From: a virus
Direction: 5' to 3' (one strand)
IMG/VR virus record: IMGVR_UViG_3300043436_003448
Coordinates: 1-64,000 of that record
DNA: 64,000 bases
Shown: positions 718 through 58,743 of the stretch, one piece after another
How positions within the stretch are numbered: the stretch's first letter is position 1
Layout: every line of letters begins with the position of its first letter
The notes under the pieces: model-generated
What the model was told of the DNA's origin: nothing
Databases searched by the model: none
Seen by the model: the letters and a program-made list of their open reading frames with translations, nothing else
Position numbers and translations under genes: made by a program

Positions 718-777
718 AAAACTCTCCAATGAGCAGCGGAGTCACTTTTTCACGAATTCCAATGTTTTCGAGGGACA

Positions 778-795
778 GCGGATCAACAGATCCGC
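778..795 (-). repeat. Stop-linked intergenic hairpin
   Basis: Perfect 7-bp stem GCGGATC/GATCCGC with a 4-nt loop, 2 nt after the TAA of the PAS gene. The context TAAACGCGGA is the same as in the hairpins of the 40-46.7 kb array, so the element is not confined to that array. Confidence 0.7.
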
Positions 796-797
796 GT

Positions 798-1475
798 TTA
801 CTCAGTTACTGTTTCGATCTTCACTGGAAGCGAAACAAAGCCCGTCTTTTGCAGTAGTGACAACACGTTGTTCAGCCCAAAAATTGAAAGTGCTATCGCT
901 GCAAATGCGGCCACTTTTCTGGGGTTTCGTTGAATCATCCGAAGCCCTCTAATAACCCATTCCTCTTCATCAGTCCTGCCCGTTACTGTCTTGATTTCAA
1001 TGTGCATTTCCTCAAGCCTTTTATTGACGGTCCCAATAGATTCCATCGCCATTGCGAAAGCAGTAGCGGTTCCATTCTTCAAAGGATCCCACGTACACAA
1101 GCAGCATTCGATTTCGCCCATTAGCGGATATCGCATCACGGACAGTTGGCCCCATTCCGGCTGACTCTGCTTAGGCTGATACTGCTTCAGAACAGTGTAA
1201 GACGGGTTGTAAGCATCCAAAGTCTTGGTTTCGTCATCGCCTTCAAGGTTCTTGTCGGGAACCGAGATTTCTCGCCACGTTAAACGCCGCAATTCATTCA
1301 ACGTATAATGAGACCATTCACAGAACGCGGCATTCGCCCAAAGGATCTTTCCGTCCATCGATGTGACCAACTTCATCGCCGGACAATGCTTAATCCACGC
1401 CCTCAAATGCGCGTCCGTTGCAATATCGTCAATCCACATTATTTCTGGTTTCCTGATAACGTCCTCTTCAGGCAT
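798..1475 (-). CDS. PAS-domain membrane protein
   Basis: 225 aa. Residues ~22-120 match a PAS fold: DGKILWANAAFCEWSHYTLN, then WREISVPDKNLEGD and a closing LSVMRYP strand. PAS domains bind small ligands or mediate sensing and dimerisation. Residues ~185-212 are hydrophobic (AAFAAIALSIFGLNNVL), suggesting one membrane segment. No kinase or output domain is present. The ATG at 1475 has no clear ribosome site; an alternative ATG at 1439 follows AGGA. A PAS protein in a phage virion operon is unusual and its job is unknown. Confidence 0.75.
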   Translation of the reverse strand: MPEEDVIRKPEIMWIDDIATDAHLRAWIKHCPAMKLVTSMDGKILWANAAFCEWSHYTLNELRRLTWREISVPDKNLEGDDETKTLDAYNPSYTVLKQYQPKQSQPEWGQLSVMRYPLMGEIECCLCTWDPLKNGTATAFAMAMESIGTVNKRLEEMHIEIKTVTGRTDEEEWVIRGLRMIQRNPRKVAAFAAIALSIFGLNNVLSLLQKTGFVSLPVKIETVTE

Positions 1476-9816: not shown

Positions 9817-9841
9817 AGATTCAGCTTTCAAATACCGTGCA

Positions 9842-9859
9842 GATTACATGCATGTGACA
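9842..9859. promoter_or_regulatory. Palindrome site c
   Basis: GATTACATGCATGTGACA, 26 nt upstream of the portal ATG and directly after the stop of the small gene to its right. Confidence 0.6.
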
Positions 9860-10093
9860 TCAGGAGTCGAACAAAAGGCACGTTTCACAGACAGCCAAAT
9901 TCTGCTTCAGTTCTTTCACGCCCACCTTTTCGGCCGAAGAGGAGTGGCGACGATCAATTTCGCGCTCAAAATCAATGGAATCTCTGACGGTGCTCATGTT
10001 CTGGAGTTGACAGCGAAAGATAGTGATTGTCGCACCGCAGGAACAGGCGTTTGTGGCAACTACGCCTCCAAGATAGCCGCATTTCTTGGCCAT
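9860..10093 (-). CDS. Small Cys-containing protein, unknown
   Basis: 77 aa. Cysteines occur as C, CSC, C and a terminal CETC, so metal binding is possible. The middle is helical and charged (STVRDSIDFEREIDRRH). It contains SSSAEK, encoded by one copy of the dispersed CGGCCG word. No good ribosome site is seen, so the start is uncertain. It fits the leftward operon ahead of the portal. The gene call itself is moderate. Confidence 0.45.
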   Translation of the reverse strand: MAKKCGYLGGVVATNACSCGATITIFRCQLQNMSTVRDSIDFEREIDRRHSSSAEKVGVKELKQNLAVCETCLLFDS

Positions 10094-10200
10094 TTTTACA
10101 TTTCATTTATGTTGCATGGTTGTTATTATGTTGTCATGTGGGCGGGTTGTGCATGTGTTAAACGCGGTTGATTGTGTGCCTTTTTAAGAGGGTTTTTGAG

Positions 10201-10449
10201 ATGGCTGGCAAGATTTCATTAGGTGTCATAATTCTGGCCTGTGCGTTTGGACTTGGATGGTATCGACGAGAAAGCACAAAGATAGAATTTGAAGTAATCA
10301 ACGTTGTCCACGAACTCCCGGAAGGCCACGTAAACACACGAGGAATCGACCCGCCGTTTACAGTCGTCGGGCGAAACCTAAAGGCCGAAACTCACATTCT
10401 CCCCGGAGTGCTCGGACAAAAGGGCGAGACGGTTAAGATTCACCAGTAG
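10201..10449 (+). CDS. Small single-pass membrane protein, unknown
   Basis: 82 aa from the ATG at 10201, preceded by AAGAGGG. The N-terminal ~20 residues are hydrophobic (ISLGVIILACAFGLGW), a signal anchor; the rest is soluble. It is the only plus-strand gene inside the minus-strand virion block and converges with the glycosyltransferase gene, overlapping it by 17 nt. A TAAACGCGG element like the stop-linked hairpins lies upstream at 10160. A possible late-acquired extra gene. Confidence 0.6.
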   Translation: MAGKISLGVIILACAFGLGWYRRESTKIEFEVINVVHELPEGHVNTRGIDPPFTVVGRNLKAETHILPGVLGQKGETVKIHQ

Positions 10450-37808: not shown

Positions 37809-37889
37809 TAGCCAGAGCAGGAATCGAACCTGCGATCTTTCAGGAAGATGTTTCGCTTCCGAATGCTCTACCAACTGAGCTACCTGGCC
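37809..37889 (-). tRNA. tRNA-like gene with expanded anticodon loop
   Basis: 81 nt. Acceptor GGCCAGG/TCTGGCT (two GU pairs), D arm GCTC-AGTTGGTA-GAGC and T arm GCAGG-TTCGATT-CCTGC are all intact. The anticodon stem TTCGG/CTGAA closes a 15-nt loop instead of 7 nt, itself able to form an inner AAG/CTT stem. No U33-anticodon arrangement is clear, so the identity cannot be read. No CCA encoded. Either a decayed phage tRNA or an altered tRNA-like RNA. Confidence 0.7.
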
Positions 37890-39008: not shown

Positions 39009-40226
39009 ATGTCAGCGGTTCTCAGTGATTTTCATTTCACGTTCGATGCAAGTTGTGCCGGCCAGATGCCTTTCAGGGTTTTCTCTGAGCCTCAATCAAA
39101 AGTGATTGAAGTTGTTGAAGTTGTGAAACCTGAAGTCGTGGATAACCGGAGTTTGGTGGATCTCTACAACGAGTTATTGGCGGCCAGTGACAAGGAAAAG
39201 CGAGTGTCAGTCAAGACGATCCAAGACAATCGATCTGCGCTGGACAAGTTTGAGACTTGGGGAAAGGCTCAACATAGAGTCGTCGCCGGTAGACCGCTGA
39301 GCTTGCTCGAGCAGCCGAAGATTCTGAGGACATACGCGGAGGTTCTTCGAGCGAAGCCGAAGGGCAATTCTTCGGCGATGGCCAGCAAAGCCTGCAGTTC
39401 AATTGGCAAGCTGGCTGCGGCATGTGTTCGGGCGGAACTGATCAAGCAGAAGCCTGAGACAGTCAGTAAATCAACGATCAACCTAATGAGGCCGCTGAGC
39501 GAGGAGCAGAGAAGAGTTAAGGCCGTTCCGGTCACGGTGGCTGAGCTCCAAGCGATGTTGTCAGTCGTCGACGGGTGTAAGTGGCCGAGACTTGGCAAGG
39601 TGAAGCCATCAGTATTCTGGCAGACTAACTTGTTGTCGCACTATGTGTACGGGTTCCGGTCCCAAGACTGGTTCGCCGCGCGATCGGCAGTGAAGCAGGG
39701 TTTGCTGTGGTCTGGAGTCATCACAGAGAGTCAATGTCCTTTTCTTGATGATCTCCACAATGAAGCAGGGTGGGCGTTGTACTTAGTCCACAAGACTGCG
39801 AACAAAGATGAGGCTGCTGATCGACCGTCAGACGTGTTGGTCCCGCTGTCGTCGAAGATGAGGAGTCTGATTGAGCAGTTCCGCGGCTTGAATTCCGAGC
39901 GAGTGTTTCCGATGAAAAACAATTCACGGACATACTCACAAGAGTTTTCAAAGATTCTCGAACGTGCAGGCCTGTCGGATGAGATGAGACGCAAGGATAA
40001 AAAGCCGATCATCCGCCTGAGTTTAGGGCAACGGAAAGTGGCGAGTTTCCGGAAGGGATCGTCGGCCATGTGGGCGAAGTATGTCAGCAGGGCGGCTTCG
40101 AGCTACATGCTTCATCATGCTGTGAGCGAAGAGGGCGTTGCGAAGATGACTCAGGAATCGTACCTGCAGAACGAAGAGATTCTTCGGGACATCTGCGCGA
40201 AGATTGAAACGCTTCCGATCTGGTAA
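39009..40226 (+). CDS. Atypical tyrosine recombinase
   Basis: 405 aa. The N-terminal half resembles a SAM-like core-binding domain (KTIQDNRSALDKFETWGK). Catalytic half: YGFRSQDW (Arg I), FRKGSSAMW (Arg II, with the usual preceding His absent) and ESYLQN near the end (nucleophile Tyr). Unlike the P4-type integrase at 50.4 kb, it has no DUF4102 start. It lies at the head of the hairpin-linked small-gene array, so it may act on that array or resolve dimers. Start ATG has no visible ribosome site. Confidence 0.6.
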   Translation: MSAVLSDFHFTFDASCAGQMPFRVFSEPQSKVIEVVEVVKPEVVDNRSLVDLYNELLAASDKEKRVSVKTIQDNRSALDKFETWGKAQHRVVAGRPLSLLEQPKILRTYAEVLRAKPKGNSSAMASKACSSIGKLAAACVRAELIKQKPETVSKSTINLMRPLSEEQRRVKAVPVTVAELQAMLSVVDGCKWPRLGKVKPSVFWQTNLLSHYVYGFRSQDWFAARSAVKQGLLWSGVITESQCPFLDDLHNEAGWALYLVHKTANKDEAADRPSDVLVPLSSKMRSLIEQFRGLNSERVFPMKNNSRTYSQEFSKILERAGLSDEMRRKDKKPIIRLSLGQRKVASFRKGSSAMWAKYVSRAASSYMLHHAVSEEGVAKMTQESYLQNEEILRDICAKIETLPIW

Positions 40227-40292
40227 TGAGATCGAAATGAACATCCGCTGTTGATTGGTTTCGTTATGTGGAACACTAAGGAGTCGATTGAA

Positions 40293-40496
40293 ATGTGGGC
40301 GTGGATTAAAGCACTGTTGACGAGTCGGAAACCGAAAAAATCTATTGTTCCGCCAGTGGGGCGAAAGCAGTGGACACTCGACCAAATGCCTCCTGGAGAT
40401 CCAATGATGCGAGAGGTCATGATGAGGGCATTGAATTCTGGAGAGCCAACGTTTGCCAGTCGCGACGATAAGGGCAAGGTGACGTATCACGAGTAA
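40293..40496 (+). CDS. Small protein, unknown
   Basis: 67 aa from ATG 40293, with AAGGAG 9 nt upstream; an ATG at 40266 has none. Basic N-terminus (MWAWIKALLTSRKPKKS) and acidic/polar C-terminus. First cassette of the array. TAA begins the hairpin that follows. Confidence 0.55.
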   Translation: MWAWIKALLTSRKPKKSIVPPVGRKQWTLDQMPPGDPMMREVMMRALNSGEPTFASRDDKGKVTYHE

Positions 40497-40519
40497 CAGA
40501 GGTAATTGCATCCGCTGTT
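40495..40519 (+). repeat. Stop-linked hairpin
   Basis: AACAGAGG pairs with CCGCTGTT (7 of 8 pairs) around a 9-nt loop. It starts inside the TAA of the preceding gene. Confidence 0.65.
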
Positions 40520-40541
40520 CCTGAAAACATTGGAGATTTTA

Positions 40542-41336
40542 ATGCGTGTTCTTTCGTTTGGTGCTGGCGTTCAATCAACAGCATTGCTGCACATGATGAT
40601 TGAAGGATTGATAAATCCAGTCGACCTGATCGTGTTTGCTGACACTGGATGGGAGCCGGAATCGGTGTATTCTCACGTCGAACAGTGCAGAATCATTGCC
40701 GATGAGTATGGAATCGAGTGGTCGACAGTCTCAAACGATCTAGGCAATGCGGAACTGTCCGCAGTAGCAGGCGACGCCAATGGTGTTCACGTTCCATATT
40801 TCACTCGGTTCAGTGGCAAATCTGGAATGGTGCGGCGGACGTGTACGCGGCTATTCAAAATCGAGCCAATTCGCCGTGAGATCAAACGTCGCATGGGTCT
40901 TCAGAAAGGCGAGCGAGTCAAAGAGAGCGTCGAAATGGTAATCGGTATTAGCTCAGACGAAAAACAGCGAATGACTCAGCCTGTCGAGAAGTGGCTCAAG
41001 CATGATTACCCGCTCGTGAACATGAGAATGACGCGACTGCAGTGCTTGGACTGGATGCGTGATCGCGGAATCACAATCCCTGCGAAAAGTGCGTGCGTGT
41101 TTTGCCCATACAAGAAGCGGGCAGACTGGCACGAGATGAAAATGAATGATCCGGAGTCGTGGCGAAAAGCAGTCAGTTTTGACAATGCGATGCGTGATAG
41201 GACCAATGACGAATCGCAGTTATTTTTGTTGGCGAGTCTTGAACCACTGGAAACCGCCAAGCTGATCACCAGTACGCGAGAGGCGCAAACGGAGTTTGGT
41301 TTTGTTGACGAATGTGAAGGCATGTGCGGCGTCTGA
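40542..41336 (+). CDS. PP-loop ATPase (PAPS-reductase-like)
   Basis: 264 aa from ATG 40542 (GGAG upstream). SFGAGVQST at 5-13 is the PP-loop that binds ATP. Then DTGWEP, CTRLFKIEPIRREIKRRMG and a C-terminal CVFCPYKKRADWHEMK zinc-like motif, all typical of phage PAPS-reductase-like proteins, a group that adenylylates or sulphur-modifies substrates and includes DndC. Substrate unknown: tRNA or DNA modification are both plausible. Confidence 0.75.
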   Translation: MRVLSFGAGVQSTALLHMMIEGLINPVDLIVFADTGWEPESVYSHVEQCRIIADEYGIEWSTVSNDLGNAELSAVAGDANGVHVPYFTRFSGKSGMVRRTCTRLFKIEPIRREIKRRMGLQKGERVKESVEMVIGISSDEKQRMTQPVEKWLKHDYPLVNMRMTRLQCLDWMRDRGITIPAKSACVFCPYKKRADWHEMKMNDPESWRKAVSFDNAMRDRTNDESQLFLLASLEPLETAKLITSTREAQTEFGFVDECEGMCGV

Positions 41337-41381
41337 AAGTAACAGCGGAACTTGTATTCGATAGTCGTTGAAAGGGCATTT

Positions 41382-41651
41382 ATGACACTGTGCATCGTTG
41401 TGTTTGATGATGAAAACGGGCTGTGCGTCCCGATGACTGCTGACGCTGATTGCGAGGGAGCAATCGAGGCCGGTTCTGGTCCGGTCATCGTGTTTGCAAA
41501 TCGGGAAGCTGCTCGCAAGGCAATCAAAATTTCAAAGGCAAAAGCCGAGTTATTGAAGGCTCAAGGCAAACCTGCCAACGAAGACTTCTTGGCATCCTGC
41601 AAGTGCCTGAAGATCCGGCAAGTGACATCATGGATCGTGTCAGGACAATGA
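41382..41651 (+). CDS. Small array protein, unknown
   Basis: 89 aa from ATG 41382 (GAAAGGGC upstream). Alpha/beta start (LCIVVFDDENGLCVPMTAD), then helical basic segment and CKCLK. No family recognised. Followed by TGAGCAGCGG hairpin variant. Confidence 0.55.
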   Translation: MTLCIVVFDDENGLCVPMTADADCEGAIEAGSGPVIVFANREAARKAIKISKAKAELLKAQGKPANEDFLASCKCLKIRQVTSWIVSGQ

Positions 41652-41689
41652 GCAGCGGTATTCCGTTCCGATCGTCAAAAGGGACTATT

Positions 41690-41938
41690 GTGTCTGAATT
41701 CGTTTACCTCGTGAATCTCTGTCACTCAATGGATGACATTCCGATGCGAATGTTTGCCGATGTCGACGCTGCGTTTGAGTACGCGAAGCTGATCGACTGG
41801 GAAGTTCCAGACGAGATGTACAAAAGGCTAGAATTGCCAGCGTGCTCAACGCCGGTTTGTGTGACTGTGACAACGTTCTGTAACGGGGTTCCGATGAGTC
41901 GGGTGGTTGTTCGGTCGTTCGATGAAGATGATGAGTAA
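41690..41938 (+). CDS. Small array protein, unknown
   Basis: 82 aa from a GTG at 41690 with AAAGGGA upstream. Alternating strands and helices (FVYLVNLCHSMDDIPMRMF, VCVTVTTFCNGVPMSRVVV), acidic end. No family recognised. Its TAA opens the next AACAGCGG hairpin. Confidence 0.55.
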   Translation: MSEFVYLVNLCHSMDDIPMRMFADVDAAFEYAKLIDWEVPDEMYKRLELPACSTPVCVTVTTFCNGVPMSRVVVRSFDEDDE

Positions 41939-41974
41939 CAGCGGTTGTCGATGTCCGATCGTCTCAGGGAGTTG

Positions 41975-42193
41975 ATGATGCAAAAGGCAGCAGTTAAGAG
42001 GTGGTGCAAACGTGGCGACACAATCAGAACGGTCAAGCCTTTGCATTTAGCTCCGGGGCGGCATTTGCACAGCATTTGCGACACTGCAGATTCCTGTGCG
42101 TATGCCAATGAATTGATCGCAAAGGGGCGGTGGGAAGTTAGTGCCTGTGGCTTGTGCGGTCGCAGCGTTGACTATTGCGACTGCGAGCAATGA
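41975..42193 (+). CDS. Small Cys-rich array protein
   Basis: 72 aa from ATG 41975 (AGGGAG upstream; ATG 41978 also fits). Basic start (KAAVKRWCKRGDTIR) and a cluster CGLCGRSVDYCDC at the end, a likely zinc site. DNA/RNA or protein binding possible. Confidence 0.55.
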   Translation: MMQKAAVKRWCKRGDTIRTVKPLHLAPGRHLHSICDTADSCAYANELIAKGRWEVSACGLCGRSVDYCDCEQ

Positions 42194-42235
42194 GCAGCGG
42201 TGTTGGTGTTCGCGTTTACTTTTGGGAGGTGAATT

Positions 42236-42454
42236 GTGGCAGTGGCAGCAAAGGTAAAGAGACCGTTTCAGAAGCTGAAAGGTGTAACGAAAGAGAATGA
42301 CGAATACGCTATGTTCAACGATCGTCGTCCGTTCGTGTTCTCGATGGTGTTCCGGGACGGGAGCAAGGTTGAGAGTGAGGGCAGTGTCAGGCCAGAAGAC
42401 TGCAAGCGGTTGGCGGAGATTTTCAAAGAGTTGATGGCGTTGGCGAAAAAGTAA
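42236..42454 (+). CDS. Small basic array protein
   Basis: 72 aa from a GTG at 42236, GGGAGGTG upstream. Pattern KVKRPFQKLKGV, then SMVFRDGSKVES and a helix. Strong ribosome site. No family recognised. Confidence 0.55.
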   Translation: MAVAAKVKRPFQKLKGVTKENDEYAMFNDRRPFVFSMVFRDGSKVESEGSVRPEDCKRLAEIFKELMALAKK

Positions 42455-42456
42455 AC

Positions 42457-42473
42457 GCGGTATGTTGGTCCGC
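42457..42473 (+). repeat. Stop-linked hairpin
   Basis: GCGG-TATGTTGGT-CCGC, 3 nt after a TAA. Confidence 0.55.
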
Positions 42474-42502
42474 TCGCATTGAAAGTTGAAAGACGGTGAT
42501 TT

Positions 42503-42667
42503 ATGTATGAATTTGGCATCTATTGGGTGTGGTTTTACAACCACGCGGAACCACGAGTCATGAAGTTTTCGTCCGGTGGCTGGGAGAGTTTCCGCAGTGA
42601 TCGGTTTATCCGTGACGAGATTGATTTTACTGAGCGAAAGCCTCAGAGGATCAGTGTTCCGGAGTAA
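42503..42667 (+). CDS. 54-aa array protein
   Basis: ATG 42503. Aromatic start (MYEFGIYWVWFYNHAEPR), then RFIRDEIDFTERKP. Stop TAA is followed by GTGCGGACTTG, another element of the family. Unknown. Confidence 0.45.
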   Translation: MYEFGIYWVWFYNHAEPRVMKFSSGGWESFRSDRFIRDEIDFTERKPQRISVPE

Positions 42668-42697
42668 GTGCGGACTTGTAGTTATGGAGGTGATCAA

Positions 42698-43012
42698 ATG
42701 TCCGAGGCCAACACAGCAGTGAAGACGCAAGAGCACAAGCCAGATCTTTCACGACTTCCAGTCTGCGGAGGCGGCTGGCAACCGATGGACGCAAAGCGAT
42801 CCTGGAATGATGGGACACAGGTACTCGTAGCCGTCCCAGTGCATAGCAAAATTCGGAACAGCAGAATGCGTGCTGTTGATGACTGGTTTTACGAGTTCTC
42901 TGTGATTGTGATCCGATGCGATGAGGACTACTTTGAGATCGAGACGGCTGACGGTGATGCCTGGGGCTGGGATCTTGACAGCGTTGATTTCTATGTGATC
43001 CTCAGTGAGTAA
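42698..43012 (+). CDS. Small array protein, unknown
   Basis: 104 aa from ATG 42698, with GGAGGTGATC upstream, the best ribosome site of the region. Alpha/beta, with acidic C-terminus rich in aromatic residues (DAWGWDLDSVDFYVIL). No family recognised. Confidence 0.55.
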   Translation: MSEANTAVKTQEHKPDLSRLPVCGGGWQPMDAKRSWNDGTQVLVAVPVHSKIRNSRMRAVDDWFYEFSVIVIRCDEDYFEIETADGDAWGWDLDSVDFYVILSE

Positions 43013-43058
43013 CTGAGGATAGGATCTGCACTCCGCTAGGCGCGGGAAGGGTAATAAA

Positions 43059-43301
43059 ATGCTAGGTCACGTCGTTCAGTTAACGTACTCCCAGAACGTT
43101 AAGCAGTGGGAATTTCCGCCGTCGAAATTTGTCACCTACACGAAATCCGATGAAGCCTGGGCAAGGCCGCTCGGGTTCGGTCGAGAAGTCACAGTCCTGA
43201 GAGTGTTTACGATTCCTCGTGCGGTCTGTGTTGGGCATGAGAACCACACATACAATTTCCGAGCGTTGTTCTCTGATTCGGTGACCGGCGTTCAGGTTTG
43301 A
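43059..43301 (+). CDS. Small array protein, unknown
   Basis: 80 aa from ATG 43059. Beta-rich (HVVQLTYSQNVKQWEFPPSK). The hairpin before it contains TCCGCTAGGCGC. Unknown. Confidence 0.5.
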   Translation: MLGHVVQLTYSQNVKQWEFPPSKFVTYTKSDEAWARPLGFGREVTVLRVFTIPRAVCVGHENHTYNFRALFSDSVTGVQV

Positions 43302-43307
43302 AGTAAA

Positions 43308-43326
43308 CGCGGAGCACACTACCGCG
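43308..43326 (+). repeat. Stop-linked hairpin
   Basis: CGCGG-AGCACACTA-CCGCG, a perfect 5-bp stem 6 nt after the TGA. Confidence 0.65.
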
Positions 43327-43341
43327 TGTCAGGGGTCAATT

Positions 43342-43569
43342 ATGAGCAGGCTATTTTGGATTGAGCCAGCAGAACCGAAGCCAAGGCAAAAGCCTCGCAA
43401 ACTGATGCACGTCATTGACGCTGGTGGTGGTGACTGCGGCGGAATGGAACGCGGCAAGCATCTTGTGCGGTTCGGGTGCGGGACATGCAAGCATAAAACC
43501 GAGTGGCAGACTGTGAAGAATATCACTGAGGGAAAGCGTGGGATTCCCTGTCCGAAGTGCAATGAGTGA
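43342..43569 (+). CDS. Zinc-ribbon array protein
   Basis: 75 aa, ATG 43342 after AGGGG. CGTC and CPKC at the C-terminal half form a zinc ribbon. The start is Pro/Lys-rich. Likely nucleic-acid or protein binding. Confidence 0.55.
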   Translation: MSRLFWIEPAEPKPRQKPRKLMHVIDAGGGDCGGMERGKHLVRFGCGTCKHKTEWQTVKNITEGKRGIPCPKCNE

Positions 43570-43607
43570 TATCGGTTGAGCGTTCCGCTGCTCATTGGGG
43601 TTTCTGT

Positions 43608-43823
43608 ATGCGATACGAGCAAAAGGCAGTGATAGAAAAAGCCGCCCCGCGAAAACTGATCGCGGGGGCACGGGGTCGGTATCGCGTTAAGTGTCTGTGT
43701 GGCAGGACGAGTATTTTCGACGCTTTCTCGTGGGCCGGTCACGGAGCACTGAGGTGCAAAGGGTGTAGGCGGTACATCAGCCAGGCTGGTGTGATTGCTG
43801 ATAATCGAAGCGAGTTAAAGTAG
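43608..43823 (+). CDS. Zinc-ribbon array protein
   Basis: 71 aa from ATG 43608. Basic (AGARGRYRVKCLCGRTSIFD) with CLC and CKGC pairs, a zinc ribbon related in layout to the preceding protein. Unknown. Confidence 0.55.
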   Translation: MRYEQKAVIEKAAPRKLIAGARGRYRVKCLCGRTSIFDAFSWAGHGALRCKGCRRYISQAGVIADNRSELK

Positions 43824-43861
43824 CATCGGAATCGTGTTCCTCTAGGCGCTGTGGTGCAAAC

Positions 43862-44089
43862 ATGATGGCAGACCTGAAATGGATTCAGCCAGGATACGTT
43901 GTGGAACTGCATACGGGATGCTGGTTGAAGCAGGCTGGTGTCAATCACACAACAACACTGGAACTGAAGTGGGCAACGCGTTGGCCGACTGAACGGTCAG
44001 CCAAAAGAGCATTGAGCCGAACGCGGAAAGCATCAATGAAGAATTTTGCAGGCGCAAAGATTTACGGCACGGATTTGGATAAAGAGTAA
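43862..44089 (+). CDS. Small basic array protein
   Basis: 75 aa from ATG 43862 or 43865. Strand-rich then basic helix (TERSAKRALSRTRKASMKNF). The hairpin before it ends TCCTCTAGGCGC. Confidence 0.5.
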   Translation: MMADLKWIQPGYVVELHTGCWLKQAGVNHTTTLELKWATRWPTERSAKRALSRTRKASMKNFAGAKIYGTDLDKE

Positions 44090-44115
44090 ACGCGGATCGT
44101 GGTTCCTCTAGGCGC
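44087..44115 (+). repeat. Stop-linked element with CTCTAGGCGC tail
   Basis: TAAACGCGGATCGTGGTTCC and then TCTAGGCGC; the same tail occurs at 43840 and 45219 and, as CGCTAGGCGC, at 43033. Confidence 0.65.
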
Positions 44116-44129
44116 AGAAAGGTTGAGTG

Positions 44130-44402
44130 ATGGACGACCGAACGACGTGTAAAAAATGTGGATACTCCACCTATGTTTGCCTCGAAGTGGTCGACGGCGT
44201 TCGGCTGTGCAGGGTGTGTAAGTCAAAGACTCTGCATCCACACTGGCCGCGAGGTCGCTGGAACGGCCAGAGGATCATGGGCGCTTCGGTGCGATGTGCG
44301 ATCGATCTGGCCTATTGTCGCTGGAAGCCGCGATGGGATAAATACTCACATTGTTTTTCGTGGCTGTGGTTCCGAATGTGGCTTGAAGCGGTTTACGAAT
44401 AA
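44130..44402 (+). CDS. Zinc-finger array protein
   Basis: 90 aa from ATG 44130 (GAAAGG upstream). CKKC and CRVC, two zinc knuckles in the first 35 residues, then aromatic and basic C-terminal part (WDKYSHCFSWLWFRMWLEAV). Unknown. Confidence 0.55.
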   Translation: MDDRTTCKKCGYSTYVCLEVVDGVRLCRVCKSKTLHPHWPRGRWNGQRIMGASVRCAIDLAYCRWKPRWDKYSHCFSWLWFRMWLEAVYE

Positions 44403-44434
44403 CAGAGGACTGGTACTCCGATAGTGAGGTTCAA

Positions 44435-44740
44435 ATGTTTGAAATCGTTGTATTGATGTCCAATCTCGTAGTCATTGGCCTGCTGTCGTGGCATTGCTTT
44501 CAGCAGTCCGAGCGGATTGCAGAACTGAATAAAGACTACGATGCAGTTTTGATGGATACGCTGGGACTCAATGAGGAAATCGCGTACTACGACACCTGCA
44601 TTAAAGAGATCGAAGGCGAGCGTGAGAGGCTGCAGCAGATGTGGGATGAACGGCCCGGAATGGTCGAACATCGTGCCGCAGAGTCAATTCTGGATGCGTT
44701 GGACTTATTGAAGCGGCAGTTGAATTCAACAGAGGTGTGA
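44435..44740 (+). CDS. Membrane-anchored coiled-coil array protein
   Basis: 101 aa. One N-terminal membrane helix (EIVVLMSNLVVIGLLSW), then long amphipathic helices. No ribosome site is strong. A spanin-like topology, but no lipoprotein partner nearby. Confidence 0.55.
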   Translation: MFEIVVLMSNLVVIGLLSWHCFQQSERIAELNKDYDAVLMDTLGLNEEIAYYDTCIKEIEGERERLQQMWDERPGMVEHRAAESILDALDLLKRQLNSTEV

Positions 44741-44744
44741 GTCA

Positions 44745-44960
44745 ATGAAGAAGACGAGGCGGAAACGCAGGCAAGAGCGAGAAAAGCTGATAAGGATGTG
44801 TGAGGCGGCGGCGAAAAAGATCGGGCGTCTGTGGGCCGGTCACATACTCGGTCGACCATGTATCGTTTGTGGACAGGCTGGAACAGGAATTGGCGACGGG
44901 TTCGTGTACTGTCAGTCACATTGGAATGAAGCGTTCGCGGCCAAAGTAAACGCGGAGTGA
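44745..44960 (+). CDS. Small basic zinc protein
   Basis: 71 aa, ATG 2 nt after the preceding TGA codon plus a few bases. Very basic start (KKTRRKRRQEREKL), then CIVCG and YCQSHW, a zinc-like pair. Nucleic-acid binding is likely. Confidence 0.5.
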   Translation: MKKTRRKRRQEREKLIRMCEAAAKKIGRLWAGHILGRPCIVCGQAGTGIGDGFVYCQSHWNEAFAAKVNAE

Positions 44961-44993
44961 CGCTACCTCTGTTCTTTTGAAAGGTTGTTTGAG

Positions 44994-45203
44994 ATGGGTT
45001 TTAAACGATATGACCTGATTGTGAGGCAGTCCGGAACTCGCATGGAAGAGAGGACGGATGGCGATTTCGTTCTTGCCGATGAGGCTCAGGCGGAAATTGA
45101 TCGGTACAGAGCCAAACTTGCAGCAATCCGTGCCGTTCATGATTCGGCACAAGATGACGAAGCGGTATGCCTGGAGATTGGTTTGATTCTGAGTAAAGAG
45201 TAA
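44994..45203 (+). CDS. Small array protein, unknown
   Basis: 69 aa from ATG 44994 (GAAAGG upstream). Strand then helices (QAEIDRYRAKLAAIRAV), acidic end. Its TAA is the first base of the next element. Confidence 0.5.
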   Translation: MGFKRYDLIVRQSGTRMEERTDGDFVLADEAQAEIDRYRAKLAAIRAVHDSAQDDEAVCLEIGLILSKE

Positions 45204-45228
45204 ACGCGGAATAACTGCCCTCTAGGCG
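45201..45228 (+). repeat. Stop-linked element with CTCTAGGCGC tail
   Basis: TAAACGCGGAATAACTGCCC then TCTAGGCG, right before the RNA ligase ribosome site. Confidence 0.6.
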
Positions 45229-45257
45229 CGCAGAATTAAGAAAACAAAGGAGTTCTT

Positions 45258-46319
45258 GTGGCAGATTCGATAACACTGATGCCTCCGCATCTTGATTGCC
45301 TGACCATCGATCCGCACGCAATTCGTAAAGAAATCGAGGCTGGATACATTTCAGAGCAGCATCATCCTGAGTGGTCCTTGCGAATCCTGAACTACACTCA
45401 GCGGTGTCAGTTCGATTGGCGGTGGAATCCTCAGACCATGCAGTGTCGCGGCCTGATCGTCGATGATGCGTGGAATATCATCGCCAGGCCGTTTCCAAAG
45501 TTCTTCAGCGTAGAGCAGTTGGGCGGAGTCGTTCCTGTTGAACCGTTTGAGGCTTACGAGAAGCTCGATGGTTCGCTTGGAATCCTATATTTCGTCGACG
45601 GCAAACCGCAGATGGCCAGCCGGGGCAGCTTCATCAGTGAGCAGGCTCAGCGGGCTACGGAGATGCTGGAAACCAAGTACAAAGACGCGAAGCTTGATCC
45701 GTCATTTACATACCTGTTCGAGATCATTTACCCGGAAAATCGCATCGTCGTTGACTACGGCGGGCGAGAAGAACTGGTCCTGCTCGCTATTATTGAAACA
45801 GAAACCGGCGTCGAGTGGCCGCTACACGGCTTCGATTCAGTGTTTCCAGTGGTGAAGCGATATGACGGGTTCAGCCAGTTCGATGAGCTTCTGGCGAATC
45901 AGGACAGCAGCCGGGAAGGCTTCGTCGTCCGGTTCGAGTCAGGACAGCGAGTCAAAATCAAGTTCGACGAATACAAGCGGCTTCACAAGTTGCTGACCGG
46001 CGTCAGTCCAAAAGCAATCTGGGAAGTCCTGAAGTCTGGTTCTGACATCTCGAAGGTAATCGAGCGGGTTCCAGATGAGTTTTTCAAATGGGTCCGTGAG
46101 ACTGAGAACGATCTGCGCGGGGCGTTCGCCTCGATCGAATCGGATGCCAGGTCGGAAATGCGGTACGTCGGGACTCGGAAGGAACTGGCAGAGCATTTCA
46201 AGACGTGCCGCTATCCTGCGGTGATGTTCAACATGCTCGACAACCGGGACTATTCCGAAACAATCTGGAAGCTGATCAAGCCATCCGGGAAGGCGTTTCG
46301 GTGTGACATTGACGTGTAG
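45258..46319 (+). CDS. T4 RnlA-like RNA ligase
   Basis: 353 aa from a GTG at 45258 (AAGGAG upstream). The adenylylation motif EKLDG puts the active lysine at residue 102; further nucleotidyltransferase motifs are FEIIYPENRIVVDY (IIIa), SREGFVVRF (IV) and VKIKFDEYKRLH (V). The C-terminal helical domain is like T4 Rnl1. It would seal RNA breaks, for example tRNAs cut by host anticodon nucleases. It is the only large gene of the array apart from the PP-loop ATPase. Confidence 0.85.
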   Translation: MADSITLMPPHLDCLTIDPHAIRKEIEAGYISEQHHPEWSLRILNYTQRCQFDWRWNPQTMQCRGLIVDDAWNIIARPFPKFFSVEQLGGVVPVEPFEAYEKLDGSLGILYFVDGKPQMASRGSFISEQAQRATEMLETKYKDAKLDPSFTYLFEIIYPENRIVVDYGGREELVLLAIIETETGVEWPLHGFDSVFPVVKRYDGFSQFDELLANQDSSREGFVVRFESGQRVKIKFDEYKRLHKLLTGVSPKAIWEVLKSGSDISKVIERVPDEFFKWVRETENDLRGAFASIESDARSEMRYVGTRKELAEHFKTCRYPAVMFNMLDNRDYSETIWKLIKPSGKAFRCDIDV

Positions 46320-46368
46320 GGTGAGGAGCGGATAACCATACCGATTTCACTGAGAACAGGGGGGACAA

Positions 46369-46644
46369 ATGGCGGCAGCGAAACAAAAACAACGGTTCAA
46401 GTCGATCGAGTCGGCTGAACGAAGAATCAGATTGCTGGAAAAACGGTTCGCGGAACTGGACGGCATTTGCGATCAGTACGTGGCAGAACTGAAGGCGCAG
46501 AAAAAGGTCTCAGTTGCTCTCGCGAAACTGGCATCAAAAGGCCCGGCGTTTTCGAATCCGCTTGACGCATGGGAAGCGGAGCAGTGCAGGGATTTGATTC
46601 TGTCGCAGTGTGGTCTGAATCCAGACGGCACGGTCAAACAATAG
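46369..46644 (+). CDS. Small coiled-coil protein
   Basis: 91 aa. Basic helical start (KQKQRFKSIESAERRIRLLE), then coiled coil and a polar end. AACAGGGG precedes the ATG. Unknown; layout is like a nucleic-acid-bound helical pair. Confidence 0.55.
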   Translation: MAAAKQKQRFKSIESAERRIRLLEKRFAELDGICDQYVAELKAQKKVSVALAKLASKGPAFSNPLDAWEAEQCRDLILSQCGLNPDGTVKQ

Positions 46645-46661
46645 CGGATGACCATCACCGC
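46644..46661 (+). repeat. Stop-linked hairpin
   Basis: GCGG-A-TGA / TCA-CCGC with a 3-nt loop and one bulged A, overlapping the TAG. Confidence 0.65.
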
Positions 46662-46687
46662 GTTTACTTTTTTTGGAGAGTCAATCA

Positions 46688-46909
46688 ATGGGTATTTGTG
46701 CGGCTATCGATCATAAGTCGTTCCCAGAGCAGTCATCGTCCAGCCCGCCCGGAACAAAGGTGCGAGTGTGCTTCAAATATAACACTGGCTACATGATTGA
46801 CGGTGAAATCGTCAGGAACGACATCGAAGAGCCAGGCGTTGGAATCATTCGTCTCAGTGACGGAAGGCATGTATTGTTCACCGAGTGCATGTATTCGATC
46901 GTGAGATGA
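46688..46909 (+). CDS. Small protein, unknown
   Basis: 73 aa from ATG 46688 (GGAG upstream). Beta-rich, SH3-like pattern (GTKVRVCFKYNTGYMIDGEI, IIRLSDGRHVLF). Possibly a small barrel. Last member of the array. Confidence 0.5.
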   Translation: MGICAAIDHKSFPEQSSSSPPGTKVRVCFKYNTGYMIDGEIVRNDIEEPGVGIIRLSDGRHVLFTECMYSIVR

Positions 46910-46947
46910 GTAGCGTATCCGGAATGCTCTTTCACTTCAAACCAATA

Positions 46948-50433: not shown

Positions 50434-51663
50434 ATGACGGACAAAATAAAGCTGACAAAAGCTGTAATTGATAAACTGGAGCCCCCTTCCTCCGGCCGAA
50501 TCTTTGTTTATGACTCGACCATCACCGGGCTCTGCGTCTGCCTGACATCGACCGGAACAACTACCTGGTACCTTTACAAGAAGGTGAACGGAAAGCCTGT
50601 TCGCCTAAAACTAGGACGATGGCCGGAAGTCACCGTTGAAGCGGCCAAGAATCTCGCGACAGAGGCAGCCGGCCGGATGGCAGGAGGCGAGGACATCCAA
50701 GCCGCTCGAGCTGCCAAGCGAAAAAAGGAAATGACCTGGGGGGAATTGTTTGAAAAGTATCTGGCCGAACATGCGAAGATTCACAAGAAGACTTGGCGAG
50801 AGGATGAAGACAATAATCGCCGGAATCTATCAGACTGGGCCGAGCGCCCATTGTCCTCCTTCACCCGGCCGGTCATCGCCGAGAAACATCGCCAGATCGG
50901 AGCCACCGGAGCCACCACCACCGCCAACAGGATCCTGAGTTTGGTTTCCAAGGTGTTCAGCTTTGCCGACGAGGCTGGACTTTGGGACAAAAGGAATCCG
51001 TGCAAGGGAATCAAGAAATTCAAAGAGGTGGAACGGGATAGATTCGTCCAGCCGAACGAGATGCCGGTTTTGCTGCTCCAGATTCAGAAATATCCGAATC
51101 CTACCCTGAGAGATTACTTCCTGATGTGCCTGCTGACCGGCGCCCGTCGTGCAAACGTCTTCACGATGAAATGGGTGGACGTGGACCTGCAGGAAGGTAT
51201 CTGGAGAATTCCGGATACAAAGTCAGGTCAGGCAGTCAGGATCGCACTCGCCCCGGAAGCACAAACTATTTTGTGCGAGCGTAAGAAAATTTGTGTGGCG
51301 GAAGGAGGATCTGAATACGTCTTCCCCGGCCGATACGGGAAGAGTCACCTGAAGGAGCCCAAAAAAGCCTGGGCGAAGATTCTGGAGAACTCCGGGTTGA
51401 AGGATTTGAAGATCCACGATCTGAGGCGAACGCTGGGAAGCTGGCAGGCGGCAGCCGGGGTAAGCTTGCCAATCATCGGAAAGAGTCTCGGTCATCGCAC
51501 GACGACAGCCACGGCCATTTATGCAAGGATGAATCTGGATCCTGTTAGGCAAAGCGTATCGGCTGCAGTGACTGCGATGATGACGGCTGGAAAGAAGGCC
51601 GCCAAGAAGAAGGGAGCCAAACCACAAGATCCTGGGGTCAATAAAAATACCGACCGATCCTAA
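50434..51663 (+). CDS. int: P4-type integrase (tyrosine recombinase)
   Basis: 409 aa. N-terminal arm-binding DUF4102 domain (LTKAVIDKLEPPSSGRIFVY onward), core-binding helices ~95-190, then catalytic residues: TGARRANVF (Arg), IHDLRRTLGSW (His/Arg), LGHRTTTATAIYAR (His, Tyr). It should recombine the tRNA-Lys attP just upstream with the host tRNA gene. PPSSGRIF is one copy of the dispersed word. C-terminus Lys-rich. An excisionase-like HTH is at 52.97 kb. Confidence 0.9.
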   Translation: MTDKIKLTKAVIDKLEPPSSGRIFVYDSTITGLCVCLTSTGTTTWYLYKKVNGKPVRLKLGRWPEVTVEAAKNLATEAAGRMAGGEDIQAARAAKRKKEMTWGELFEKYLAEHAKIHKKTWREDEDNNRRNLSDWAERPLSSFTRPVIAEKHRQIGATGATTTANRILSLVSKVFSFADEAGLWDKRNPCKGIKKFKEVERDRFVQPNEMPVLLLQIQKYPNPTLRDYFLMCLLTGARRANVFTMKWVDVDLQEGIWRIPDTKSGQAVRIALAPEAQTILCERKKICVAEGGSEYVFPGRYGKSHLKEPKKAWAKILENSGLKDLKIHDLRRTLGSWQAAAGVSLPIIGKSLGHRTTTATAIYARMNLDPVRQSVSAAVTAMMTAGKKAAKKKGAKPQDPGVNKNTDRS

Positions 51664-53036: not shown

Positions 53037-53178
53037 TGTGCAATTGCTCAACCAGTGGCGATCGGCGAGGAAAGGCCCCAGCTTCATAAAGCTGGGCCGA
53101 TTCATCAGGTACAAGTCTGATGAGCTTCAGGAATGGATTGACAAGCGACAAGTTAAGACGAATCTGAAGTTGGTTTGA
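52969..53178 (+). CDS. Excisionase/MerR-like helix-turn-helix protein
   Basis: 69 aa. LLTPRQAAEKLQVDVQLLNQ and the wing WRSARKGPSFIKLGRFIRYK are the winged HTH of the excisionase/HTH_17 group; DELQEWIDKR closes it. An ATG nearby at 52960 is equally possible. It may direct integrase towards excision or control early genes. Confidence 0.75.
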   Translation: MSVSVTQPELLTPRQAAEKLQVDVQLLNQWRSARKGPSFIKLGRFIRYKSDELQEWIDKRQVKTNLKLV

Positions 53179-53234
53179 GATTTGATTGTTCCATTGGTTA
53201 TTCAATTGTTTTTTACTTTGAAAGGCTGGCTGCC

Positions 53235-54251
53235 ATGAGTGTTTCTCCCGGAACAAGTGTTGAAGATGATTTCCGTCTGGATGATGATTTTGAGTTCGAT
53301 ATTGACCTGTCAGCGATCCAAACGACAGTTCGCCCCGAAGCAGTGATGAGCGACCGAAAGGCCGATGAAACCCTGTCAAATGTGGGCGAAATGGTGTCCG
53401 CGACGACTACGAGAATTCCTCTCTCTTCGGCCGGAGGAAGTGTGTTGTATGTCGACATCGAAACGATTCCGGACTATGAGCGTCAGCACTTGTTTGGGCT
53501 GGATCCGCTCCCCGTTGTTCCGCCAGAACTGACGACCGAAAACCTGATGACTCCGGCTGAATTCCTGAGTCAGACAATCACTGAAATCAATCAGTGGTTT
53601 TCGAAGAACAACCCGTGCGAGGAATGGCTTCAGCAGTTGGAAACTGTTGAGGCTGCAACCGGGGGAAAGAAGGGAAGCCGGAAGGGCGTCTTTGATTCGA
53701 TTAAGGAAGCCAGAGAATCGAAGAATGCTGTCGCAAAGGCGATCAAGGCCAATCGAAAGAAGATGAGCGTAACGCCCGAGATGGCTCAGATTGTTGCAAT
53801 TGGTTTCGCAATCGATGACGAACCCGTGATTGCATCAGTTCTTGGACAAGACGGAGCAACCGAAAAGGGAATGCTCGAAGCCTTCTGGTTTATGGCCAAA
53901 CGCTGCCAGCACATTTGCGGATTCAATGTTGCCGGGTTTGACCTGCCAACGATTTTCTTCCGCTCGATCATGCTTGGCATCCCAGCGACCAGGTTGGTTG
54001 ATTTGAGTCCATACAAGGATCATGTGATTGATCTGATGGTGAGCCGCTTCGGACGCAACGGCGAAAGGGGCATGGGGCTCAAAAACGTCGCAAAACTTTG
54101 TGACATCCAAGTTCCATGCGAGGGGGTTGACGGTTCTCAGGTTGAAGAACTGTTTCGGGCAAACCCGCCGCTTGTCGGCCAGTACGTTGCAAGTGACATC
54201 ATTGTCACGAGGAAATTGCACCGGCTTTATTCAGGGTTTTTCTGCGTTTGA
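53235..54251 (+). CDS. DEDD 3'-5' exonuclease (PolB exonuclease-like)
   Basis: 338 aa from ATG 53235, GAAAGGCTGG upstream. VLYVDIETIP gives DxE, FNVAGFDLPTIFF and YVASDIIVTRKLHRLY supply the other acidic residues of the DnaQ/PolB-like exonuclease. The first ~80 residues are disordered. Near RecT-like protein, it may provide resection or proofreading. Confidence 0.75.
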   Translation: MSVSPGTSVEDDFRLDDDFEFDIDLSAIQTTVRPEAVMSDRKADETLSNVGEMVSATTTRIPLSSAGGSVLYVDIETIPDYERQHLFGLDPLPVVPPELTTENLMTPAEFLSQTITEINQWFSKNNPCEEWLQQLETVEAATGGKKGSRKGVFDSIKEARESKNAVAKAIKANRKKMSVTPEMAQIVAIGFAIDDEPVIASVLGQDGATEKGMLEAFWFMAKRCQHICGFNVAGFDLPTIFFRSIMLGIPATRLVDLSPYKDHVIDLMVSRFGRNGERGMGLKNVAKLCDIQVPCEGVDGSQVEELFRANPPLVGQYVASDIIVTRKLHRLYSGFFCV

Positions 54252-54336: not shown

Positions 54337-55434
54337 ATGAGCACAGCACTTTCAACCCAAACGCAACCGGCCGGAGAGGGAAGGCCAAATTCTGGCACGA
54401 TCACCCGCCCTGGCTTCAACTCTGCTGATTCTTACCGGCTTTGCCATCAGCTTTCGAAGGTATTCGCCGCGAGTCACCTGGTACCAACGTTGTACCGAGC
54501 CAGCGAAGCGAATTGCATGATTGCCATTAGCATGGCCAGTCGGATGCAAATGGATCCTCTGACCGTCATGCAGAACCTTTTCATCATCCAGGGCAAGCCG
54601 AGCTTTTCCGCTCAGTTCCTGATTGCCAGCTGGAACGCTTGCGGCCGTTTCTCGCCGATTCGCTACCAATGGACCGAGAAACGCGACGGATGCCGAGCGA
54701 CTTCCCGGGATCTTCAAACCGGCGAAGAGTTGGTTGGAACACTGGTCACAATCGCGATGGCAAAGGCTGAAGGCTGGTACGGAAAGCCGGGGAGCAAATG
54801 GCAGACGATGCCGGAACTGATGCTTCAGTATCGCGCCGCCGCGTTTCTGGTCCGCACGTATGGGGCTGAAATCGCTCTGGGAATGAGCACAACGGAAGAG
54901 GCTGAAGACGTTTCCGGGACGCGAGCCGTTGACCCGACCTCCGGCGATATGGTGAAATTGGCGGTTTCGCCAATCGAGCCGCCAACGGTGAAGGTTGAGG
55001 TTATTGAGTCAACTCCTGAGACGGCTGAAGTGATTGAAGCAACGGTTGAACCCTCTTCCTCTTCGGCCGTAACTGTCGTTGAAGCTCCTGTTCTTTCGTC
55101 CGTGACTCCTGTTGTTTCAAATGCTGCTCCTGTTGTTTCAACCGAATCAGTATCCGCATCAGCAGTTGAGGACGAAGCCCCCGTTTCCCCTGAAACGCTG
55201 GCCTACCTCGGTGAACTGGTTAAAGAGATCAATCCACCGAAAGAAAAATGGGTGGCAACACTCCATAAGAAATACGGTGTGACCTCCGCGAAACTGCTCA
55301 ATGAGAAGCAGGCTCAAGCCGTCGTGAAGTGGGCGAAATCTCAGGTTGAATCTCTTCGCCTCACAAAATGGACGGCTGGACAAGGCGAAGCGAGGGAGGC
55401 GAGCGCAGAGGCCGCCCCCTTTCAGACAACCTGA
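54337..55434 (+). CDS. RecT-like ssDNA annealing protein
   Basis: 365 aa. ISMASRMQMDPLTVMQNLFI and IQGKPSFSAQFLIASWNACG match the RecT family core; helix-rich followed by a long Val/Glu/Ser linker (PSSSSAVTVVEAPV) and an extra helical C-terminus (TLAYLGELVKEI). It anneals ssDNA during recombination or repair. ATG with no strong ribosome site. Confidence 0.75.
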   Translation: MSTALSTQTQPAGEGRPNSGTITRPGFNSADSYRLCHQLSKVFAASHLVPTLYRASEANCMIAISMASRMQMDPLTVMQNLFIIQGKPSFSAQFLIASWNACGRFSPIRYQWTEKRDGCRATSRDLQTGEELVGTLVTIAMAKAEGWYGKPGSKWQTMPELMLQYRAAAFLVRTYGAEIALGMSTTEEAEDVSGTRAVDPTSGDMVKLAVSPIEPPTVKVEVIESTPETAEVIEATVEPSSSSAVTVVEAPVLSSVTPVVSNAAPVVSTESVSASAVEDEAPVSPETLAYLGELVKEINPPKEKWVATLHKKYGVTSAKLLNEKQAQAVVKWAKSQVESLRLTKWTAGQGEAREASAEAAPFQTT

Positions 55435-58464: not shown

Positions 58465-58743
58465 ATGCTGGTTTTGTCTCGAAAACGTGGCGAGATTATC
58501 GACCTCCCGGAACTCGGAGTGTCATTCAAAATCATCGACTTCAAATCCGCTGGCATTGTTTCAGTCGGCATCGAAGCACCGGCAAACATTCGCGTTCACC
58601 GTCGCGAGATTCTTGAGAAGATCGAAGCTCAGGAAAACGACACGCCAGCCGCAGAAACTGAACCTGTTCAGCCCGCTCCACTCTGGGCGAAGAAGCAGAG
58701 ACGAAACAAGAAAGAGAACAATAAGGAAGGCCAGCGATCATGA
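58465..58743 (+). CDS. csrA: CsrA-family RNA-binding regulator
   Basis: 92 aa. MLVLSRKRGEIIDLPELG, VSVGIEAPANIRVHRREIL match the CsrA core; residues 56-92 are a charged Lys/Asn-rich extension. CsrA dimers bind GGA in RNA hairpins near ribosome sites and block or activate translation. AAGGA precedes the ATG. The stop overlaps the RecD-N start (ATGA). Targets could be host or phage mRNA. Confidence 0.9.
   Translation: MLVLSRKRGEIIDLPELGVSFKIIDFKSAGIVSVGIEAPANIRVHRREILEKIEAQENDTPAAETEPVQPAPLWAKKQRRNKKENNKEGQRS

What the first reader, a model, noticed from the sequence alone, without database searches (positions are those of the whole stretch)
40220..46670. Cassette-like array of small genes joined by stop-linked hairpins
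About 17 mostly tiny genes follow the atypical recombinase. Nearly every gap begins at the stop codon with TAA-C/A-A/G-GCGGA (or GAGGA), 7-10 variable bases, then TCCGC or TCCTC, several ending CTAGGCGC (near 43033, 43840, 44110 and 45219). Perfect stems occur at 43308 and 778 and good ones at 40495, 42457 and 46644. Copies outside the array are at 778 and 10160. The pattern of one gene plus one related hairpin recalls gene cassettes with recombination sites, or processing/translation-control hairpins. The stem GGA could also be a CsrA target, as a CsrA gene is carried at 58465.
Basis: partly seen in the sequence, partly recalled or inferred. Interest (0 to 1): 0.85.

Follow-up and report, generated by a model that had tools for sequence, protein, structure and literature searches.

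The report
Address-coded gene cassettes in phages
A group of uncultured phages keeps its small accessory genes in slots separated by short DNA tags that are different for every slot but come in the same order in unrelated-looking phages, which appears to let phages swap genes between genomes without scrambling them.

Summary
The repeated stop-linked elements are real, but they are not RNA hairpins. Each is a symmetric pair of about 10-nt half-sites around a 9-10 nt 'word'. The words are the discovery. About 20 words recur in about 35 viral contigs in the same orientation and order, although the genes between them are nearly all different. Of 993 ordered word pairs, 26 were discordant, mostly pattern-matching errors, against 456 expected; four contigs fetched afterwards were 16/16 concordant. 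In same-word sites with unrelated flanks, the 7-nt core is 94-100% identical, while half-sites are little more alike than those of different words. Nearly identical blocks shared between otherwise different contigs start and stop at these sites (35 of 50 ends; about 11% for random positions). The same cassette, half-sites included, also turns up at different addresses. An atypical tyrosine recombinase heads this array and 10 related ones, and was not found in any other setting. Best reading: heterospecific recombination sites through which phages exchange single-gene cassettes in register, a natural counterpart of recombinase-mediated cassette exchange. Exchange at the sites is shown. The enzyme is inferred. 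Short-homology annealing (a RecT-like protein is encoded) is the main rival.

The parts
39009..40226 (+). Atypical tyrosine recombinase (405 aa) at the head of the array; candidate catalyst
   Evidence: Weak Pfam PF00589 (E 0.027) for this protein and PF13102 (E 0.001) for one relative; hhalign to canonical phage integrases aligns R217, K262, R348, H370, with conserved Y385 in A2; Foldseek top 11 hits all tyrosine recombinases, best Tn1549 Int 6en2 E 4e-4 (low-confidence model).
40226..40254 (+). Site W01, word AATGAACAT (left half-site degenerate, GA instead of GG)
   Evidence: Sequence; same word directly after the recombinase stop in G002 and G017 and with the variant AATGAACAT in G003, G023, G041.
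40493..40521 (+). Site W02, word TAATTGCAT
40542..41336 (+). Cassette gene, PAPS-reductase family protein
   Evidence: PF01507 E 1.7e-7; phrog_424 E 4.4e-42
41339..41367 (+). Site W03, word AACTTGTAT
41649..41677 (+). Site W04, word TATTCCGTT
41935..41964 (+). Site W05, word TTGTCGATGT (10 nt)
42191..42220 (+). Site W05a, word TGTTGGTGTT
   Evidence: same relative position in G014, G027 and G013
42451..42479 (+). Site W05b, word TATGTTGGT
   Evidence: also in G013 in order
42664..42692 (+). Site W05c, word ACTTGTAGT (right half-site degenerate)
   Evidence: also in G013, G014 in order
43014..43042 (+). Site W06, word ATCTGCACT
43303..43331 (+). Site W07, word AGCACACTA
43566..43594 (+). Site W08, word TTGAGCGTT
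43820..43848 (+). Site W09, word AATCGTGTT
44086..44114 (+). Site W10, word ATCGTGGTT
44399..44427 (+). Site W11, word ACTGGTACT
44946..44975 (+). Site W12, word AGTGACGCTA (10 nt)
45200..45228 (+). Site W13, word AATAACTGC
45258..46319 (+). Cassette gene, T4-type RNA ligase
   Evidence: PF09511 E 2.5e-14; phrog_562 E 2.1e-67
46322..46350 (+). Site W14, word ATAACCATA
46638..46667 (+). Site W14-like, word ATGACCATCA
   Evidence: sequence
46906..46934 (+). Site W15a-like, word TATCCGGAAT (degenerate half-sites)
   Evidence: sequence; cf. ATCCGGAAT in G041
772..801 (-). Outlying site W16, word ATCTGTTGAT
   Evidence: same word after the W15 end of the array in G007, G015, G020; variants ATCGTTGAT in G002, G013, G017, G021

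Best explanation
The array is a set of about 20 slots bounded by site-specific recombination sites. Each site has two inverted half-sites that bind a recombinase and an asymmetric spacer ('word') that serves as the crossover (overlap) sequence and as the address of the slot. Sites with the same word in two co-infecting genomes (or phage and prophage) recombine. Two such exchanges at two different addresses swap the cassettes between them and leave order and orientation intact. Copies of one word within one genome would delete what lies between them, which keeps each word single. The half-sites carry the stop codon of the upstream gene and the start of the leader of the next, so any cassette fits any neighbour. 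Shown: site anatomy, word conservation and order, exchange of blocks at the sites, half-sites travelling with cassettes. Inferred: that a tyrosine recombinase, most likely the one at 39009-40226 or a relative in trans, cuts at the word edges.
For: Order: in about 35 contigs, 993 ordered word pairs gave 26 discordant, mostly false pattern hits; permutation mean 456 and minimum 362 of 10,000 on the 32-array non-redundant subset. Contigs fetched after the order was fixed: 16/16 pairs concordant. Words in forward orientation 206, reverse 0. Word core 94-100% identical in 1,501 same-word pairs whose flanks are unrelated, half-sites close to the different-word control, nothing beyond +/-14 nt. Left and right half-sites share one consensus but do not pair with each other. 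1,620 same-word pairs have no flank in common, 95 share exactly one flank, 16 share both. Recent blocks: G009 and G002 share 2.3 kb at 99.3% from W06 to W13 and nothing else over 100 bp; G001 and G002 are 99.8% identical starting at W01, unrelated before it; 35 of 50 block ends at sites in both contigs, random 11% in one. One cassette with its own half-sites sits at W08-W09, W06-W07 and W04-W10. Recombinase is followed by array sites in all 11 loci with enough downstream sequence and had no relative in 84,980 bacterial and archaeal genomes at the sensitivity of the scan. The window and G017 each carry a separate canonical integrase.
Against: Most arrays (about 19 with upstream sequence) do not have this recombinase next to them, nor any PF00589 match in the fragment (G004 has a canonical integrase elsewhere). 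Half-sites are variable for a recombinase site. Words are not more different from each other than column-shuffled words, so no selection for orthogonality is seen. Cassettes found at different addresses need some recombination between unlike words. No excised circle or hybrid intermediate was seen. The recombinase model has low confidence (pLDDT 57) and the first H of the HxxR motif is not evident.
Confidence: 0.58

Rival explanations
1. The words are short homology linkers used by general phage recombination (RecT-type annealing), in the sense of the modular-evolution linkers proposed for lambdoid phages. Order is kept because exchange between like words is in register; half-sites are conserved for another reason, such as stop codon plus protein or ribosome signals.
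For: The window encodes a RecT-like protein (54337-55434) and an exonuclease (53175-54251). Some same-word pairs share 25 nt or more (6.5%). All order and block evidence fits equally well.
Against: Contiguous identity at same-word sites with unrelated flanks has median 15 nt, 79% under 20 nt; conservation is a 7-nt block, not a graded homology; a symmetric half-site pair at constant spacing is not needed for annealing; RecT found in only 1 of 33 records and ERF in none, though these are fragments.
Confidence: 0.3
2. RNA hairpins at gene ends for mRNA processing or translation coupling.
For: Position at stop codons, mostly one per gene; some perfect stems by eye.
Against: No covariation: pairing equals within-word shuffles and is lower than overall shuffles; does not explain words or order; no Rfam match in the array.
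Confidence: 0.05
3. Arrays are simply inherited from one ancestor and the words are leftover ancestral sequence, with genes replaced by illegitimate recombination.
For: Common order implies a common ancestral scaffold.
Against: Breaks fall at sites far more often than chance, words are conserved while everything around them is replaced, blocks at 99% identity sit in otherwise different contigs.
Confidence: 0.05
4. CsrA/RsmE binding sites controlling the array, through the CsrA-like gene at 58465.
For: A CsrA-like protein is encoded (phrog_9500 E 1.3e-8); GG in all elements detected here (part of the search pattern).
Against: Base after GG is A or T about equally; no hairpin; words unexplained.
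Confidence: 0.01

Closest known systems
dif modules / pdif sites of Acinetobacter plasmids (XerC/XerD), e.g. PMC13141974
   Same: Gene modules bounded by tyrosine-recombinase sites of two half-sites and a short variable spacer; spacer identity decides which sites recombine; a single module can be exchanged by cointegrate formation and resolution.
   Different: pdif sites alternate in orientation, have a 6-bp spacer and distinct XerC and XerD arms. Here all sites have one orientation, a 7-nt conserved core in a 9-10 nt spacing, symmetric arms, stop codon inside the half-site, phage-borne, and spacers form a fixed ordered series shared by many phages.
Engineered heterospecific lox/rox sites and RMCE (e.g. 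PMC4777119)
   Same: Spacer variants recombine with themselves and not with others; two heterospecific sites allow in-register cassette swap.
   Different: Engineered, two or a few sites; here about 20 natural addresses.
Integron gene cassettes (attC/IntI)
   Same: Array of small promoterless genes, mostly one per recombination site, with a tyrosine recombinase at the head.
   Different: attC core motifs absent (RYYYAAC 1/248, GTTRRRY 1/248, both 0), sites about 29 bp, no folded-stem conservation, order of addresses fixed and not free.
Mycobacteriophage cluster K SAS/ESAS (PMC3203893)
   Same: Repeated intergenic inverted repeats with variable spacer in a phage genome, gene-linked.
   Different: ESAS lie at start codons, 17-bp repeats with 4-13 bp spacer; the passages read describe no positional code or boundary exchange; function unknown.
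Lambdoid-phage module linkers (modular theory; from memory)
   Same: Conserved short sequence at exchangeable module boundaries.
   Different: Few junctions, no common half-site, no serial word code.

Membership tests
Integron cassette array | attC core motifs RYYYAAC and GTTRRRY | tested here: not met
   1, 1 and 0 of 248 elements
Integron cassette array | Site folds as a conserved imperfect hairpin | tested here: not met
   No pairing beyond within-word shuffles
Integron cassette array | IntI-type integrase beside the array | tested here: inconclusive
   Tyrosine-recombinase fold; the integron integrase structure 2a3v is only the 10th Foldseek hit, E 0.05; IntI-specific patch not tested
dif modules (pdif) | Sites alternate in orientation | tested here: not met
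   206 forward words, 0 reverse
dif modules (pdif) | 6-bp spacer between distinct XerC and XerD arms | tested here: not met
   9-10 nt between GG and CC; both arms share one consensus
dif modules (pdif) | Recombination requires near-identical spacer | tested here: inconclusive
   Fits the in-register block exchange but some cassettes changed address
Tyrosine recombinase | R-K-H/K-R-H/W-Y catalytic residues | tested here: inconclusive
   R217, K262, R348, H370 aligned with canonical integrases and conserved Y385; the first H of HxxR is not evident
Tyrosine recombinase | Fold | tested here: met
   Foldseek hits with E < 0.1 are exclusively tyrosine recombinases, best E 4e-4, on a low-confidence model
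Tyrosine-recombinase core site | Inverted half-sites around an asymmetric 6-8 bp overlap | tested here: met
Tyrosine-recombinase core site | Cleavage and strand exchange at the overlap by the enzyme | not testable with these tools
   needs biochemistry
CsrA regulon sites | ANGGA in a hairpin loop | tested here: not met
   GGA in 58% only, no hairpin

The most novel reading that the evidence does not exclude
A third class of natural gene-cassette platform beside integrons and dif modules: a population-wide, order-fixed code of about 20 heterospecific recombination sites run by a dedicated recombinase, which lets phages trade single genes or runs of genes at defined addresses without scrambling.
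Probability: 0.45. Interest if true: 0.95.

Novelty: new variant of a known kind. Interest (0 to 1): 0.9.

Why it matters
Phage mosaicism is usually explained by illegitimate recombination followed by selection, or by occasional linker homology. Here the boundaries are marked and numbered, and the numbering is shared across many phages, so phage module exchange becomes directly testable. If a recombinase reads the words, it would be a natural multi-address cassette exchange system with about 20 sites and a potential DNA-assembly tool. It also gives a way to find accessory phage genes: most of the slot genes tested had no known family.

Tried and rejected
Hairpin covariation: tested and absent. 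Inverted elements at 42191 and 46638: first thought to be reversed copies, but the words read forward. Orthogonality of words: tested, not above random. CsrA: GGA not conserved. attC: motif absent. The element at 10160: only one half-site. Named relatives or hosts: no recombinase match in annotated phages or in genomes; a 17-mer scan of genomes gave 20 matches, none with an array of words around it, so the host is unknown. Recombinase profile found nothing in PDB sequences. Array DNA against annotated phages gave only the RNA ligase gene. RecT and ERF searches in relatives: only the window is positive for RecT, but records are fragments. Literature searches found no description of such an array; preprints and most subscription papers are not covered.
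Full report
What was checked. The window is most of a 66,368-base virus record. From the stop codon of a 405-aa recombinase gene (39009-40226) to about 46935 there are 19 small genes, most separated by one short element overlapping the stop codon of the upstream gene.

The variable bases are not variable in the ordinary sense. Relatives of the recombinase carry quite different genes downstream, separated by elements with the same 9-10 nt spacers, in the same order. Pattern scans of viral contigs for the half-sites or for single words gave about 35 more or less independent contigs. Whole contigs or long stretches were read. The ordered words are: W01 (AGT)GGAACAT or AATGAACAT, W02 TAATTGCAT, W03 AACTTGTAT, W04 (A/T)ATTCCGTT, W05 (A/T)TGTCGATGT, W05a TGTTGGTGTT, W05b TATGTTGGT, W05c (A/T)CTTGTAGT, W06 (A/T)TCTGCACT, W07 AGCACACTN, W08 (A/T)TGAGCGTT, W09 (A/T)ATCGTGTT, W10 (A/T)TCGTGGTT, W11 TCTGGTACT, W12 (A/T)GTGACGCTA, W13 AATAACTGT, W14 ATAACCATN and variants, W15a CGGAAA-type, W15 (A/T)TCGGAACT. 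Further out come W16 (ATCTGTTGAT or ATCGTTGAT) and W17 AACTGGACT.

Order test. Among 993 ordered pairs of different words in the same array, 26 are discordant; most of these come from a loose pattern for W15a and one for W01 matching by chance. Permutation of the 32-array non-redundant subset gives 456 on average and never fewer than 362 in 10,000. The real exceptions seen are a W04/W03 swap in G029, a duplication W04-W10-W04-W10 in G033, and W07 in G026. The order was partly derived from these arrays, so four contigs fetched afterwards are the cleaner test: all 16 pairs agree. Inside the arrays words are forward 206 times and reverse never. Pattern density is 230 per 173 kb in arrays against 15 per 1,840 kb elsewhere.

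Anatomy. Left half-sites have consensus A-N-N-A-[GT]-[CA]-G-G, and right half-sites give the same when reverse-complemented (the GG of the left half-site is imposed by the search). The two halves of one element do not match each other better than halves shuffled among elements of the same word (3.045 vs 3.023 +/- 0.038 of 6 pairs, p = 0.30) and match less than halves shuffled overall (3.20), so the symmetry is of binding-site type and not of stem type. In 1,501 same-word pairs whose flanks are unrelated, word positions 2-8 are 94-100% identical (control 20-31%), first and last positions less, half-sites are close to the different-word control, and nothing is shared beyond 14 nt on either side. 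That is a 7-nt conserved block inside a symmetric pair, which is what a tyrosine-recombinase core site looks like (overlap 6-8 bp, established knowledge).

Cassettes. Of 214 intervals between neighbouring sites, 164 hold exactly one gene; median length 319 nt; the genes fall in 195 families. Some intervals are empty: in G003 W02 and W03, and in G010 W01 and W02, are only about 33 nt apart.

Exchange at the sites. Of same-word pairs, 1,620 share neither flank, 57 only the left, 38 only the right, 16 both. Blocks of at least 94% identity between contigs that are otherwise different end at a site in both contigs in 35 of 50 cases; a random position in one contig lies that near a site in 11%. Two cases are plain. 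G009 and G002 share 2.3 kb at 99.3% running from W06 to W13, and no other stretch over 100 bp. G001 and G002 are 99.8% identical from W01 onward for 500 bp and again for 5 kb from W04/W05, while before W01 one has a helicase-primase-like region and a small gene of ribbon-helix-helix type (both by eye), and the other has the recombinase. A cassette whose gene ends in ...GTAAACGCGG and whose leader begins TAGGCGC or TAGTCGC sits at W08-W09 in G020, W06-W07 in G013 and W04-W10 in G018 and G030: the half-sites travel with the gene, the words stay.

The recombinase. Pfam gives PF00589 at E 0.027 for the window protein and PF13102 at 0.001 for a relative. hhalign against canonical integrases of the same phages aligns the catalytic R, K, R and H motifs, and a conserved Y385 follows. 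A model of low confidence (pLDDT 57) still gives only tyrosine recombinases as its hits below E 0.1: Tn1549 Int, Cre, XerH, VchIntIA. It is not the phage's ordinary integrase: the window has a canonical one at 50434-51663 (PF00589 E 1.2e-23), and G017 also has one. In all 11 recombinase loci with enough downstream sequence the array follows. About 19 other arrays have no such gene beside them; their contigs are fragments.

Mechanism. Shown: ordered addresses, exchange at the sites, half-sites moving with cassettes. Inferred: a tyrosine recombinase binds the half-sites and exchanges strands at the word. Pairs of same-word exchanges between two genomes would swap one or several cassettes and keep order, as in engineered cassette exchange with heterospecific sites (PMC4777119). 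Any duplicated word would be lost again by recombination between its copies, so arrays stay sorted. Relocation of cassettes between addresses needs occasional exchange between unlike words; the nearest structural hit, Tn1549 Int, belongs to a family known for tolerating unlike crossover sequences (established knowledge). Annealing recombination at short homology is the main rival: a RecT-like protein and an exonuclease are encoded in the window. Against it, contiguous identity at same-word sites is 15 nt in the median and under 20 nt in 79%, and symmetric half-sites would be unexplained.

Known systems. dif modules are nearest in working principle: spacer identity governs exchange (PMC13141974). 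But those sites alternate in orientation, have different arms and a 6-bp spacer, and that report describes extensive shuffling and not a common order. Integron attC motifs are absent. Cluster K ESAS share inverted repeats with variable spacer but sit at start codons (PMC3203893). No description of such an array was found in the searches. The finding is rated a new variant of a known kind because site-specific cassette exchange is known; the serial address code shared across phages is, to my knowledge, not.

Limits. All sequences are uncultured viral fragments, so absence of a gene in a record means little. Host unknown. Several contigs are close relatives and were counted once where this was plain; contigs that share blocks are not fully independent. 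The word list and order were built by hand from the data.

Noticed in passing
window 54337-55434 and 53175-54251 (+): RecT-like annealing protein and a PolB-type exonuclease, a likely phage recombination pair.
   Followed up: partly
window 50434-51663 (+): Second, canonical tyrosine integrase, so this phage carries two tyrosine recombinases.
   Followed up: partly
window 37809-37889 (-): tRNA-like gene for which ARAGORN reports an unresolved four-base anticodon (aaac).
   Followed up: no
window 45258-46319 (+): T4-type RNA ligase carried as one cassette; nearest DNA in annotated phages is from actinobacteriophages.
   Followed up: no
contigs with W01 but no recombinase (G001, G010, G012, G015, G016, G018): W01 follows a short conserved gene (MKKKASKGRPKHPAGMRAKV...) that looks like a ribbon-helix-helix protein; possibly an alternative array-associated factor.
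   Followed up: partly
G033 (L195) 9231-10400: W04-W10-W04-W10: a duplicated pair of addresses, perhaps a trapped intermediate.
   Followed up: no
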